Of a DNA stretch of 37,606 nt, positions 34,213 through 37,606 are shown in pieces. The position numbers and the translations under genes are program-made. Position 1 is the first letter of the stretch, and every line of letters starts with the position of its first letter. The stretch is from Sulfurimonas sp. (GTDB lineage Bacteria > Campylobacterota > Campylobacteria > Campylobacterales > Sulfurimonadaceae), in NCBI GenBank assembly GCA_028689055.1, contig JAQTWZ010000016.1:1-37606 (forward strand), written 5' to 3'. The notes under the pieces were generated by a model, which was given only the letters and a program-made list of their open reading frames with translations, did no database searches and was not told where the DNA came from.

Positions 34213-35085
34213 ATGAATCATACACACTTTACATATCTTCTTATACTATCAATGTTTCTTTGGGGTGCTGGATGGACTGCACTTAAAATACTCACTGCTA
34301 CGCTTCCTGTAGATATCATCGTCTTTTGGCGTTTTTTTATTGTTAGCCTCTCTTTTTTACCTATTTTATACTTTATCAAAAAACCTCTGACGCTTAACAT
34401 TTCAAGTCTAAAATATATTCTTGGAAGTTCTGTACTCAATATCTCTTTTATGGTTTCTTCTTTTTTGGGCATCAAATATGGTCTCGCAGGTTCAGGCAGT
34501 GTCATCATTACCACACTCAGCCCAGTTATGACTTTTTTACTTGTAGCACTTGTCTTTAGAAGGAGACTGGAAAATATCCAATATTTTGGACTCGCACTTG
34601 GAATAGTTGGTGGTGTTGTGATGCTTGAACTGAGCGATCTTTCTCTCTTTTTTAACAGTGCGAATATCTACTTTTTACTCTCCGCCACGATTTGGGCTGG
34701 GGTCACCATGCTCTCACAGCATTCACAAGTGCATATTCATCCCGTACATTACAGCTTTTTTATCTCTCTCACAGCGACTATCGCATCCTTTTTTTATACC
34801 TACAACGCAGATCTTTTAGTAGTATTTGAGCAGGGAAGCGAGTTTTGGATTGCGCTTCTCTACATATCCGTTTTAGGTCAAAGTGTCGCAACGACGATAT
34901 TTTTTATAGCCGCAGGAAAACTTGGAAGTGAGAAGACAAGTTCTTTTATGTTTTTAGTTCCCGTTTTTGCTCTTATGATAGCATGGCTCATTCTCGATGA
35001 AGCGATACAGTTGCATATTGTTGTAGGCGGTGCAATCAGTGTTTTAGCCCTCTTGTTTATAAATAAAAAACCAAACACTTTTTAG
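34213..35085 (+). CDS. EamA/DMT-family transporter
   Basis: A 290-residue inner-membrane protein with about ten hydrophobic helices arranged as two EamA repeats. The first repeat begins LILSMFLWGAGWTALKIL and ends in YGLAGSGSVIITTLSPVMTFLLVALVF. The second includes LLSATIWAGVTMLSQHS and SFMFLVPVFALMIAWLILDEAI. Family members export amino acids, nucleosides or other metabolites; substrate cannot be predicted. The ATG at 34213 has no clear ribosome-binding site. A terminator upstream and a promoter at its 3' end separate it from both neighbouring operons. Confidence 0.88.
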   Translation: MNHTHFTYLLILSMFLWGAGWTALKILTATLPVDIIVFWRFFIVSLSFLPILYFIKKPLTLNISSLKYILGSSVLNISFMVSSFLGIKYGLAGSGSVIITTLSPVMTFLLVALVFRRRLENIQYFGLALGIVGGVVMLELSDLSLFFNSANIYFLLSATIWAGVTMLSQHSQVHIHPVHYSFFISLTATIASFFYTYNADLLVVFEQGSEFWIALLYISVLGQSVATTIFFIAAGKLGSEKTSSFMFLVPVFALMIAWLILDEAIQLHIVVGGAISVLALLFINKKPNTF

Positions 35086-35123: not shown

Positions 35124-36254
35124 ATGCAAGTTCTTCAAAACAAAAAAAACTGTTCTGCAAACTTTATCGTCATCTCAACCATTCCCGTACTCTTTTTTCT
35201 CTTTGTATCTCTTGGTTTTATCGGCTTTATTCCTTTAAATATATCTTTACACACATTAGCTATTTTAGGTTTTATACTTTTTATTTTTTTACTTTTTATA
35301 CCTCACAATGCCAACTATAGCATCTGCAAAATGCGTGACTCCTATGCTGTTTTAGAAGAAGAAATCCAAGAAAAAATAAACGCAACCATGCTGCATTTTG
35401 GGGATGAAAGTAAGTCTGTGCTAGATTTACAAAACTATCTTCACACACACTATGCAGATATCAGAAACAACAACTTCGTCTCCGTAGCCTCTTCTATCTT
35501 TCCTATGATGGGTATTTTAGGGACTTTTATCGCTATCGCCATTTCTATGCCAAACTTTTCCGTCAAAGAAACAGCAGCCCTTGATAATGAAATAAGTATG
35601 CTTCTTAGCGGTGTTGGTTCTGCGTTTTTTGCTTCTATTTACGGTATCTTGCTCTCACTTATCTGGACCTACTTTGAAAAAAGAGGTTTGAGTAAAGTAG
35701 ATGTCTATTTTGGAATGATTAACAATATATTCGCGGCATCATTATGGAGCAGAGAAGATCTTATCATTCACAAGCAAGCTCATGAAGATCAAAAAGAGAG
35801 ACTACTCATCTCTGCTCTTAAAGAAACTTTTGATTTAGATTTCATCAAAACGCTCAACACCCAGCATCTTGAGAGTTTTGAGAAAATCATGCAGGAGAGT
35901 AATCAAAACTTCACAAACCTTGCTACTCACCTCTACAAAGCCTCACATGAGCTCCAAGAAGTGCTAGGTGAAGTTGATAAATCACAAAGTGCTGTTGGTG
36001 CTAGAAACCATATCGATAAGGCTTTGGTGGATTTTACCGTCGCAACACGAAGCTTTGAAAAAACGACAAAACTCTTTAGTGCTGAACTCAATAATTCGCT
36101 CAATCTTACTTTTACAAAAATAGACAGTGAAGTCGGTAATATCGTCATAAAACTTGCAGATTTTGCCGCTCATGTCTCTCAGGAGAGCCAAGAAACGCAA
36201 GAGAGTATCAGAAAATACCACCAGTTGGTAGCCAATCAGCTTAGAGACAAATAG
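35124..36254 (+). CDS. MotA/TolQ/ExbB-family proton channel subunit, ZorA-like
   Basis: A 376-residue inner-membrane protein. Hydrophobic segments lie at about 13-37, 42-60, 118-141 and 160-182. The last two contain the conserved channel region (SSIFPMMGILGTFIAIAI and LLSGVGSAFFASIYGILLSL), where Gly, Ser and Ala residues face the ion path in MotA/TolQ/ExbB proteins. The C-terminal 190 residues are a long, soluble, probably helical tail, as in ZorA of the Zorya anti-phage system and unlike ExbB or TolQ. It would form the stator ring of a proton-driven motor with the next gene. AGGAAA precedes the ATG. The following gene begins right after its stop. MotA itself is less likely, as there are no flagellar neighbours. 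Confidence 0.82.
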   Translation: MQVLQNKKNCSANFIVISTIPVLFFLFVSLGFIGFIPLNISLHTLAILGFILFIFLLFIPHNANYSICKMRDSYAVLEEEIQEKINATMLHFGDESKSVLDLQNYLHTHYADIRNNNFVSVASSIFPMMGILGTFIAIAISMPNFSVKETAALDNEISMLLSGVGSAFFASIYGILLSLIWTYFEKRGLSKVDVYFGMINNIFAASLWSREDLIIHKQAHEDQKERLLISALKETFDLDFIKTLNTQHLESFEKIMQESNQNFTNLATHLYKASHELQEVLGEVDKSQSAVGARNHIDKALVDFTVATRSFEKTTKLFSAELNNSLNLTFTKIDSEVGNIVIKLADFAAHVSQESQETQESIRKYHQLVANQLRDK

Positions 36255-37235
36255 ATGTTTAGAAAAAATACAAAAGATGAAGATACAAATTTCTGGCTCT
36301 CGTATGCCGACCTTATGGCGGGTTTGCTTTTTGTATTTATCCTGCTTATCGGCGCTATCGTCGTAAAATCAATCGTGCTTAAATCCAATCTTGAGAGTAA
36401 AGAGAACTCACTTGAGAGCTCTTTGCAGCTCCTTTTGTTACGTGATACTGAAGTGCAAAGGCTCCAAGCCCTACTATCACAAAAAACAGATGAACTTAGT
36501 GATAAAGAAAAAGAGTTCCAAAACACACTAGAACTTACCGCGCAAGAGATTATAAATCTCAACAGCGTTTTACTCTCTCAAACAATGCATATAGATGATC
36601 TCAACGCAACAATTTTAGCTCTCTCCGGTGAGCTTGTAAATAAAGAAGATGCACTTGCACAAAATCAAAACAAATATGACATTCTTATCGCAAAACTCCA
36701 AGAGCAAAAAGCAAAGATTAAAAGTCTCACAGGCATAAAAATAAAAGTCATTGCCGAACTCAAACAAAACTTAGGCAAAAATATACAAATTGACCCGATA
36801 AGCGGCTCATTGAGACTCTCTTCCAATATTCTCTTTGATAAAGGAAGCGCCGAACTCAAAGAATCATCGAAACACGAGCTCAAAAAAGTATTTATTAACT
36901 ATGTAGGTGCGCTCACTTCCAACAAAAATATCAAAAACCAACTTGATAAAATCATCATCGAAGGGCACACAGACAGTGATGGCACGTATCTCTACAACCT
37001 CGACCTTTCTCAAAAAAGAGCCTACGCCGTTATGCGTTATCTATTGACACTTGATTTTACTGAGAAAAATAGTCTCAAACCACTTCTGCTTGCAAGCGGA
37101 AGAGCAGATCAAGATACAATCAAAGATAAAAAAGCACAAGAAGATAAAGAACTCTCACGAAGAATAGAGATAAAATTTACCCTTAAAAACGATGATGCGC
37201 TCCATGAAATAGAGAGGATTTTGGACTATGAGTAA
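36255..37235 (+). CDS. MotB/ZorB-like OmpA-domain motor subunit
   Basis: A 326-residue protein with one N-terminal membrane helix (about 17-40). NFWLSYADLMAGLLFVFIL includes Asp19, in the place of the proton-carrying aspartate of MotB and ZorB (DLMxGL pattern). Residues about 40-165 are a long coiled coil. Residues about 190-315 are an OmpA peptidoglycan-binding domain: ILFDKGSAELKESSKHEL, IIIEGHTDSDGTYLYNLDLS, ASGRADQ and ELSRRIEIKF. It follows the channel gene with no gap and overlaps the next small gene by eight bases. With the channel it should form a cell-wall-anchored proton-driven complex. What it moves or does is not shown. Confidence 0.87.
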   Translation: MFRKNTKDEDTNFWLSYADLMAGLLFVFILLIGAIVVKSIVLKSNLESKENSLESSLQLLLLRDTEVQRLQALLSQKTDELSDKEKEFQNTLELTAQEIINLNSVLLSQTMHIDDLNATILALSGELVNKEDALAQNQNKYDILIAKLQEQKAKIKSLTGIKIKVIAELKQNLGKNIQIDPISGSLRLSSNILFDKGSAELKESSKHELKKVFINYVGALTSNKNIKNQLDKIIIEGHTDSDGTYLYNLDLSQKRAYAVMRYLLTLDFTEKNSLKPLLLASGRADQDTIKDKKAQEDKELSRRIEIKFTLKNDDALHEIERILDYE

Positions 37236-37389
37236 CTTCGAACCTAGCTTTCTTCATCTAGCATCAAGGTATCTTGAGGAAAAACTACATGAGCGAACAA
37301 AAGAGAAAAAACCCCAAGCCTTTAAACCCGAACAAGGAAAAAAAGAGCGTGGCTTTTTAAAATTTATCCACTCGTTTTTTAGATCCTAA
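37228..37389 (+). CDS. Small basic protein of the motor operon (53 residues)
   Basis: The frame runs from ATG 37228 (overlapping the MotB-like gene by eight bases, with AGAGAGGAT about 12 bases upstream) to TAA 37387-37389. The protein starts MSNFEPSFLHLASRYLEEKL, continues with a lysine-rich stretch (HERTKEKKPQAFKPEQGKKE) and ends FLKFIHSFFRS, a short amphipathic or hydrophobic tail. It has no signal peptide and I recognise no family. The tight overlap suggests it is made with the motor proteins, perhaps as an adaptor. A convergent gene begins one base after it. Confidence 0.6.
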   Translation: MSNFEPSFLHLASRYLEEKLHERTKEKKPQAFKPEQGKKERGFLKFIHSFFRS

Positions 37390-37390
37390 A

Positions 37391-37606
37391 CTAACGCAGT
37401 GTGACTGCATATCCTTTGTTAGTGTTTGCAAGAGAGTATCTGTAGTATCCGTCAAGCTCTATTACGACACGATAATAACCGGAGTGATTTCCTACTCTAA
37501 TTTTTGAAAAAATATTTTGTGAAACTTCTTTTGTATAGGCTTTGATATTTGCATCTCTTTTAAAATCTAAGACTATTCTGTGCGGATGCGAGAGCAAGAA
37601 GTTTCT
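37391..37606 (-). CDS. AMIN-domain protein, C-terminal part (runs off the window)
   Basis: The last 71 residues of a larger protein that enters from the right. LLSHPHRIVLDFKRD, then VSQNIFSKIRVGNHSGYYRVVIELD and a closing YRYSLANTNKGYAVTLR match the beta-rich AMIN domain, which binds peptidoglycan in AmiC amidases and PilQ-like secretins. The domain normally precedes a catalytic or channel domain, but here it ends the protein. The N-terminal part is outside the window, so its role cannot be decided. It is transcribed towards the motor operon and its stop lies one base from that of the small protein. Confidence 0.65.
   Translation of the reverse strand, partial: RNFLLSHPHRIVLDFKRDANIKAYTKEVSQNIFSKIRVGNHSGYYRVVIELDGYYRYSLANTNKGYAVTLR

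What the first reader, a model, noticed from the sequence alone, without database searches (positions are those of the whole stretch)
35124..37389. ZorAB-like motor operon with an added small protein and no Zorya effector
The channel protein has a long soluble tail and its partner has the DLMAGL helix with Asp19, a coiled coil and an OmpA domain, as in the ZorA-ZorB motor of Zorya defence. The usual ZorC, ZorD or ZorE genes are not here. Instead a 53-residue basic protein overlaps the motor gene, and the operon ends against a gene for a peptidoglycan-binding AMIN protein. It may be a free-standing proton-driven motor with another job, such as envelope maintenance or defence using the small protein as adaptor or effector. 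This is the best candidate here for an undescribed system.
Basis: partly seen in the sequence, partly recalled or inferred. Interest (0 to 1): 0.66.

Follow-up and report, generated by a model that had tools for sequence, protein, structure and literature searches.

The report
Free-standing ZorAB-like motor with small partner
Three adjacent genes in a Sulfurimonas bacterium encode a proton- or sodium-driven membrane motor related to the motor of the Zorya anti-phage system, without its DNA-attacking partners but with a conserved small companion protein; relatives are near-universal and unstudied in Campylobacter-like bacteria, so this looks like a working motor with an unknown job.

Summary
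A (35124-36254) is a MotA/ExbB-type channel protein with a cytoplasmic tail, B (36255-37235) has the ion-path Asp19, a long coiled coil and an OmpA domain, and s (37228-37389) is a real gene: frame kept, dN/dS 0.07-0.23, homologs after B in five families of the order. In the channel-core tree A groups with ZorA, away from MotA/TolQ/ExbB (98/100), but as its own clade (94/87). No ZorC, D or E gene was seen beside any examined copy. The pair is no Sulfurimonas oddity: it occurs in 146 of 298 Campylobacterota genomes and in 110 of 120 of one family (Campylobacteraceae by inference), there mostly at one fixed locus (PPIase-fba-A-B, the position of Cj0598-Cj0599, unstudied as far as I could find). 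28 of 43 carriers lack any detectable flagellar MotA, so it is not a flagellar stator. The AMIN neighbour is convergent and kept with or without the pair. Best reading: a free-standing, peptidoglycan-anchored ion-driven motor with an ancestral A-B-s operon, doing cellular work rather than carrying standard Zorya defence. What it drives, and what s does, are inferred. New variant of a known kind.

The parts
35124..36254 (+). A: MotA/TolQ/ExbB-family channel protein, 376 aa, four predicted TM segments (res 15-33, 45-63, 124-142, 157-175)
   Evidence: PF01618 34.6 bits; hydropathy; groups with ZorA, 98/100 against Mot/Tol/Exb
35523..35525 (+). T134 of A, ion-path Thr in TM3
   Evidence: Aligned with ZorA T147 (K. 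pneumoniae); kept in 29/29 relatives
35634..35636 (+). S171 of A, ion-path Ser in TM4
   Evidence: Ser in all Campylobacterota A and in the six ZorA checked, Thr in MotA/TolQ/ExbB
35649..36251 (+). cytoplasmic tail of A (res 176-376), mostly helical
   Evidence: helical prediction of low confidence
36111..36143 (+). conserved motif near the distal end of the tail, FTKIDSEVGNI (res 330-340)
   Evidence: I333 invariant and D334 nearly so in an otherwise variable tail; pattern found in most relatives but not all
36255..37235 (+). B: ZorB-like stator subunit, 326 aa
   Evidence: OmpA 55 bits; PADLOC ZorB1 PDLC00609 197 bits
36309..36311 (+). D19 of B, ion-carrying Asp in DLMAGL
   Evidence: Invariant in alignment A2
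36381..36749 (+). periplasmic coiled-coil stalk of B (about res 43-165)
   Evidence: AF2 helix 9-176, pLDDT mostly 65-80; length varies among relatives
36831..37151 (+). OmpA-like peptidoglycan-binding domain of B (res 193-299)
   Evidence: PF00691; invariant G237, T239, D242, G243, N248, S252, R255
37228..37389 (+). s: small basic protein, 53 aa, start overlaps B by 8 nt
37345..37386 (+). C-terminal basic/aromatic, possibly amphipathic stretch of s (ERGFLKFIHSFFRS)
   Evidence: Hydrophobic moment 0.73, share of shuffles as high 0.006 here, but not significant in most relatives; pattern kept in the alignment

Best explanation
A, B and s form an operon for a free-standing ion-driven membrane motor of the ZorAB branch. 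Shown: the gene order, the ion-path residues (B D19; A T134 and S171), the OmpA domain, the placement of A beside ZorA and apart from Mot/Tol/Exb, and purifying selection on s with homologs in the same position in other families. Inferred: by analogy with ZorAB and MotAB (5:2 complexes), two B subunits are held to peptidoglycan by their OmpA domains on a coiled-coil stalk while five A subunits turn around them as protons or sodium pass; the A tails form a cytoplasmic shaft whose distal end drives or releases a partner; s, made together with B by overlapping genes, sits on the cytoplasmic side and couples or regulates this. The motor does ordinary cellular work, independent of flagella and of Zorya nucleases, and was kept by vertical descent in Campylobacteraceae with patchy loss or transfer in Sulfurimonas.
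For: Nearest solved structures are ZorA (8vvn, 8vvi, 8qyk) and ZorB (8qyd, 8vvi, 8vvn). Core tree: A plus ZorA against Mot/Tol/Exb 98/100, Campylobacterota A one clade 94/87. TM4 Ser shared with ZorA, Thr in Mot/Tol/Exb. No known effector gene seen beside the mapped copies. 110/120 genomes of family f11 carry B; in mapped copies from six f11 genera A-B follows PPIase and fba. 28/43 carriers have no MotA hit. s: dN/dS 0.07-0.23; a profile from other families ranks post-B ORFs of four Sulfurimonas loci 1-4 of 2265, the window's s second at E 1.9e-5; the reverse search puts four post-B ORFs first of 5427.
Against: No function of any member is known to me or found in the library searched. s is missing in f11, in several other relatives and in one Sulfurimonas carrier, so it cannot be essential to every motor of the clade. 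The A tree rests on 100 columns with long ZorA, Mot and Tol branches; the B tree is unresolved. A could not be folded with confidence. That s is cytoplasmic or binds A is inference from its lack of a TM or signal.
Confidence: 0.55

Rival explanations
1. An anti-phage system of a new Zorya type, in which the motor senses phage at the envelope and s, or effectors encoded elsewhere, act.
For: Nearest kin are ZorA/ZorB; patchy in Sulfurimonas, 23/76; a small third gene takes the place of effector genes.
Against: Near-universal in f11 at one locus; no known defence genes noticed beside mapped copies; s has no domain hit in Pfam, PADLOC, NCBIfam or PHROGs and was not found at the loci where the pair is most conserved; the plasmid search found only one weak A hit.
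Confidence: 0.15
2. An envelope force generator like Tol-Pal, in which B's long stalk and OmpA domain move or tether peptidoglycan or outer membrane, for instance during division.
For: Long, length-variable stalk of B; OmpA domain; PPIase (PEB4-like) beside the pair in f11 and AMIN/DivIC-like genes beyond it in many Sulfurimonas carriers.
Against: Neighbours are not shared between families; AMIN is kept without the pair; a TolQR-like pair exists in the same genome; the conserved motif near the end of the cytoplasmic tail suggests work on the cytoplasmic side.
Confidence: 0.2
3. An accessory or alternative stator of the flagellar motor.
For: MotB-like helix and OmpA domain in B.
Against: Separate from MotA at 98/100; 28/43 carriers lack a MotA hit; the host genome has its own motAB.
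Confidence: 0.03
4. A plain gene pair followed by a chance open frame.
For: s is short, weakly conserved in sequence and absent in some relatives.
Against: Frame kept beyond chance, dN/dS 0.07-0.23, and homologs in the same position in other families.
Confidence: 0.03

Closest known systems
ZorA-ZorB of Zorya type I (8qyd, 8vvn)
   Same: ion-path Asp/Thr/Ser, OmpA domain, cytoplasmic tail on A, gene order A-B; best profile matches
   Different: no ZorC/ZorD; four predicted TM segments in A against three; A tail ~200 residues against 450-530; B has a longer stalk; separate clade; extra s gene
ZorA-ZorB of Zorya type II (8vvi, Sulfuricurvum kujiense)
   Same: A of similar length (378 aa), same ion-path residues
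   Different: no ZorE; type II A lacks the N-terminal part of ours; B short
Cj0598-Cj0599 of Campylobacter jejuni
   Same: by position (PPIase-fba-A-B) the same pair; Cj0598 is listed as hypothetical, function unknown (PMC5841378)
   Different: identity inferred from position and recall, sequence not compared directly; no s gene at the f11 loci
Flagellar MotAB
   Same: four TM segments in A, OmpA-domain B, Asp in TM
   Different: other branch of the tree; TM4 Thr; carriers without MotA exist
TolQR / ExbBD
   Same: MotA_ExbB domain of A
   Different: other branch; TolR/ExbD have no OmpA domain (general knowledge)

Membership tests
Zorya anti-phage system | ZorA/ZorB above NCBIfam curated cut-offs | tested here: not met
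   A best 42 bits against 500; B 69.7 against 400
Zorya anti-phage system | adjacent effector genes (ZorC+ZorD, ZorE, or type III genes) | tested here: not met
   None recognised beside the pair in the window or mapped relatives; a true type I locus, L047, scored ZorC and ZorD as a control. Neighbours of the relatives were judged from maps and a few domain scans, and type III genes were not searched by name
Zorya anti-phage system | A and B fall within the ZorAB clades | tested here: inconclusive
   A next to but outside sampled ZorA (Camp 94/87, Zorya 71/64); B tree unresolved
Zorya anti-phage system | ion-path Asp in B and Thr/Ser in A | tested here: met
   D19, T134, S171
Zorya anti-phage system | ZorA-specific beta-sheet in the cytoplasmic domain (PMC12505986) | tested here: inconclusive
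   AF2 of A has mean pLDDT 41
Zorya anti-phage system | protects against phage | not testable with these tools
   needs plating assays
Flagellar MotAB stator | groups with MotA | tested here: not met
   28/43 carriers without a MotA hit
TolQR/ExbBD | groups with TolQ/ExbB; B without OmpA domain | tested here: not met
5:2 ion-driven rotary motors (broad) | MotA_ExbB protein with a single-TM Asp partner in one operon | tested here: met
5:2 ion-driven rotary motors (broad) | 5:2 complex that rotates on ion flow | not testable with these tools
   needs purification, cryo-EM, single-particle assays

The most novel reading that the evidence does not exclude
A further kind of peptidoglycan-anchored rotary motor, neither flagellar, Tol/Ton nor defensive, ancestral in much of the Campylobacterota, that works on the cytoplasmic side through the A tail and the small protein s; Zorya's motor may then be a relative recruited for defence.
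Probability: 0.4. Interest if true: 0.8.

Novelty: new variant of a known kind. Interest (0 to 1): 0.58.

Why it matters
Zorya is the best-known use of this motor branch. A near-universal, non-flagellar ZorAB-like motor in Campylobacter-like genomes means the branch has a cellular use that can be tested by simple gene removal, and it gives a comparison point for how the Zorya motor came to sense phage. The conserved third gene is a concrete handle on what such a motor acts on. It also warns that ZorB profiles score high (PDLC00609, 197 bits) on genes without Zorya effectors, so defence surveys of this phylum may over-call if B alone is trusted.

Tried and rejected
AF2 of A (3 sequences, pLDDT 41) and the OmpA part of B (pLDDT under 50) were too poor for fold search, so none was run. 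A single-sequence search with s found one convincing relative; reading the position after B and profile searches found the rest. The B tree did not resolve. A shared tail-end motif between A and ZorA was tested against heptad-preserving shuffles: two ZorA tails score above the best shuffle (13.9 and 11.6 against 7.9), but at internal positions, so no homology of the tail ends is claimed. Link to AMIN rejected. MORN-repeat protein and RND genes lie upstream in most Sulfurimonas carriers but not in the window, so they are not counted as parts. Literature on Cj0598/Cj0599 gave no function. One search was a script error, repeated correctly. Spread outside Campylobacterota was looked at only in plasmids.

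Full report
What is there. The window is one contig (G000:C22) of a Sulfurimonas genome; relatives found by B are named Sulfurimonas in their record titles. A (35124-36254), B (36255-37235) and s (37228-37389) are in one direction with no gap between A and B and an 8-nt overlap of B and s. A has PF01618 at 34.6 bits and B has PF00691 OmpA at 55.1 bits; MotB_plug stays below its cut-off; s has no hit in Pfam, PADLOC, NCBIfam or PHROGs. A has four hydrophobic segments and about 200 residues after the last. B carries NFWLSYADLMAGLLFVFILL with D19, then a long helix (residues 9-176, pLDDT mostly 65-80), then the OmpA domain. The window ends inside the convergent AMIN gene; its last 127 bases overlap contig C51, which continues with AMIN, a DivIC-like gene, eno and recA.

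Which family. Profiles of A and B from 15 relatives match ZorA and ZorB best among solved structures (8vvn, 8vvi, 8qyk for A; 8qyd, 8vvi, 8vvn for B). In a tree of the 100-column channel core, A and ten ZorA-type proteins separate from MotA, TolQ and ExbB with 98/100, and the 29 Campylobacterota A proteins form one set (94/87) apart from the Zorya set (71/64). Many ZorA, Mot and Tol branches are long, so the exact join is unsure. The TM4 ion-path residue is Ser in all Campylobacterota A and in the six ZorA checked, and Thr in MotA, TolQ and ExbB; the TM3 Thr is common to all. The B tree did not resolve. NCBIfam Zorya cut-offs are far from met, and no ZorC, ZorD or ZorE was recognised beside the pair, while a real type I locus (L047) scored all four parts as a control. 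So it works like ZorAB by anatomy, but is not filed as Zorya.

How widespread. A was found in 146 of 298 Campylobacterota genomes, 19 of 58 genera. B was found in 110 of 120 genomes of family f11. In the f11 copies mapped (six genera) A-B follows a PPIase gene and fba, and in most is followed by the same desulfhydrase/ACC-deaminase-like gene. The PPIase and aldolase of one f11 genome match best the solved Campylobacter jejuni proteins 3rfw and 3qm3 (that these entries are from C. jejuni is from my own knowledge). By position the pair is therefore Cj0598-Cj0599 (gene order in C. jejuni from my own knowledge); Cj0598 is listed as hypothetical, function unknown (PMC5841378). In Sulfurimonas 23 of 76 genomes carry A, many at the AMIN-eno-recA site, while AMIN is in 75 of 76 and its 3' side is variable. 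A MotA search found no hit at E 1e-15 in 28 of 43 carriers, including all 16 of family f6 and all nine of genus g34 tested. The motor is thus not tied to flagella.

The small gene. In 24 loci, 18 have an ORF of 39 aa or more starting at B's end, against 2.75 expected from dinucleotide shuffles; L100's is probably spurious, as it does not match the family pattern. Pairwise dN/dS is 0.07-0.23 where dS could be computed, though some dS values are saturated. A profile of Sulfurimonas s proteins puts post-B ORFs of other families at ranks 1-4 of 5427 (best E 3.4e-4), and a profile without Sulfurimonas puts the ORFs after B of four Sulfurimonas loci at ranks 1-4 of 2265, the window's second at E 1.9e-5. 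Homologs by position and pattern occur in families f1, f6, f8, f9 and f20. They share an N-terminal pattern F-x-[PA]-x-x-[LIT] leading into a helix-like stretch, a basic middle of variable length, and a C-terminal aromatic/basic stretch. Amphipathicity of that end is clear in the window but not significant in most relatives. No s was found at f11 loci, nor in L035, L042, L043, L096 or L099. The least number of changes of s presence on the A tree is six, which fits an old gene with losses but cannot prove direction.

How it most likely works. By analogy with the solved ZorAB complexes (PMC11890865), A and B should form a 5:2 ion-driven motor with B tied to peptidoglycan. The longer stalk of B and the conserved motif near the end of A's tail suggest that it spans from the wall to a cytoplasmic partner; s, its start overlapping the end of B and without a TM or signal, is the natural candidate for a partner or regulator. 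These last steps are inference. Conservation at one locus in f11 and the absence of recognised defence genes nearby argue for a cellular job over defence; envelope work is a live rival.

Verdict. The AMIN link is not supported, and defence is possible but not favoured. New variant of a known kind, with an open and testable function.

Noticed in passing
L048:8806-12224 (G049:C56): A ZorAB type II-like pair (890-aa A, 248-aa B) lies between exbBD-like genes and PPIase-fba-efp-like genes with no ZorE beside it: another effector-free ZorAB-like pair, at a locus akin to that of the f11 pairs.
   Followed up: partly
L106:107-8483 (Prevotella plasmid pE2-28, NZ_CP091789.1): A ZorAB-like pair sits between two FtsK-annotated genes and hypothetical proteins, with no known Zorya effector in the stretch shown; it may be a further Zorya-like type.
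   Followed up: no
L161:4144-6674 and L162:242-2850 (G378, G379): A second A-B pair in two Sulfurimonas genomes, with a 592-615 aa A and a 251-252 aa B without the long stalk, next to a peroxiredoxin gene: in size between this family and ZorAB.
   Followed up: partly
L033:3726-8561 and most Sulfurimonas carriers: RND transporter genes and a 205-aa MORN-repeat protein precede A in most Sulfurimonas carriers; in the window an EamA transporter gene (34213-35085) is there instead.
   Followed up: partly
window 37391-37606 and L114-L142: The 3' side of the conserved recA-eno-DivIC-AMIN block is variable across Sulfurimonas and holds many different genes.
   Followed up: partly
L131:215-1326 (G393): The B gene appears split into two open frames, either a decaying copy or an assembly error.
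   Followed up: no
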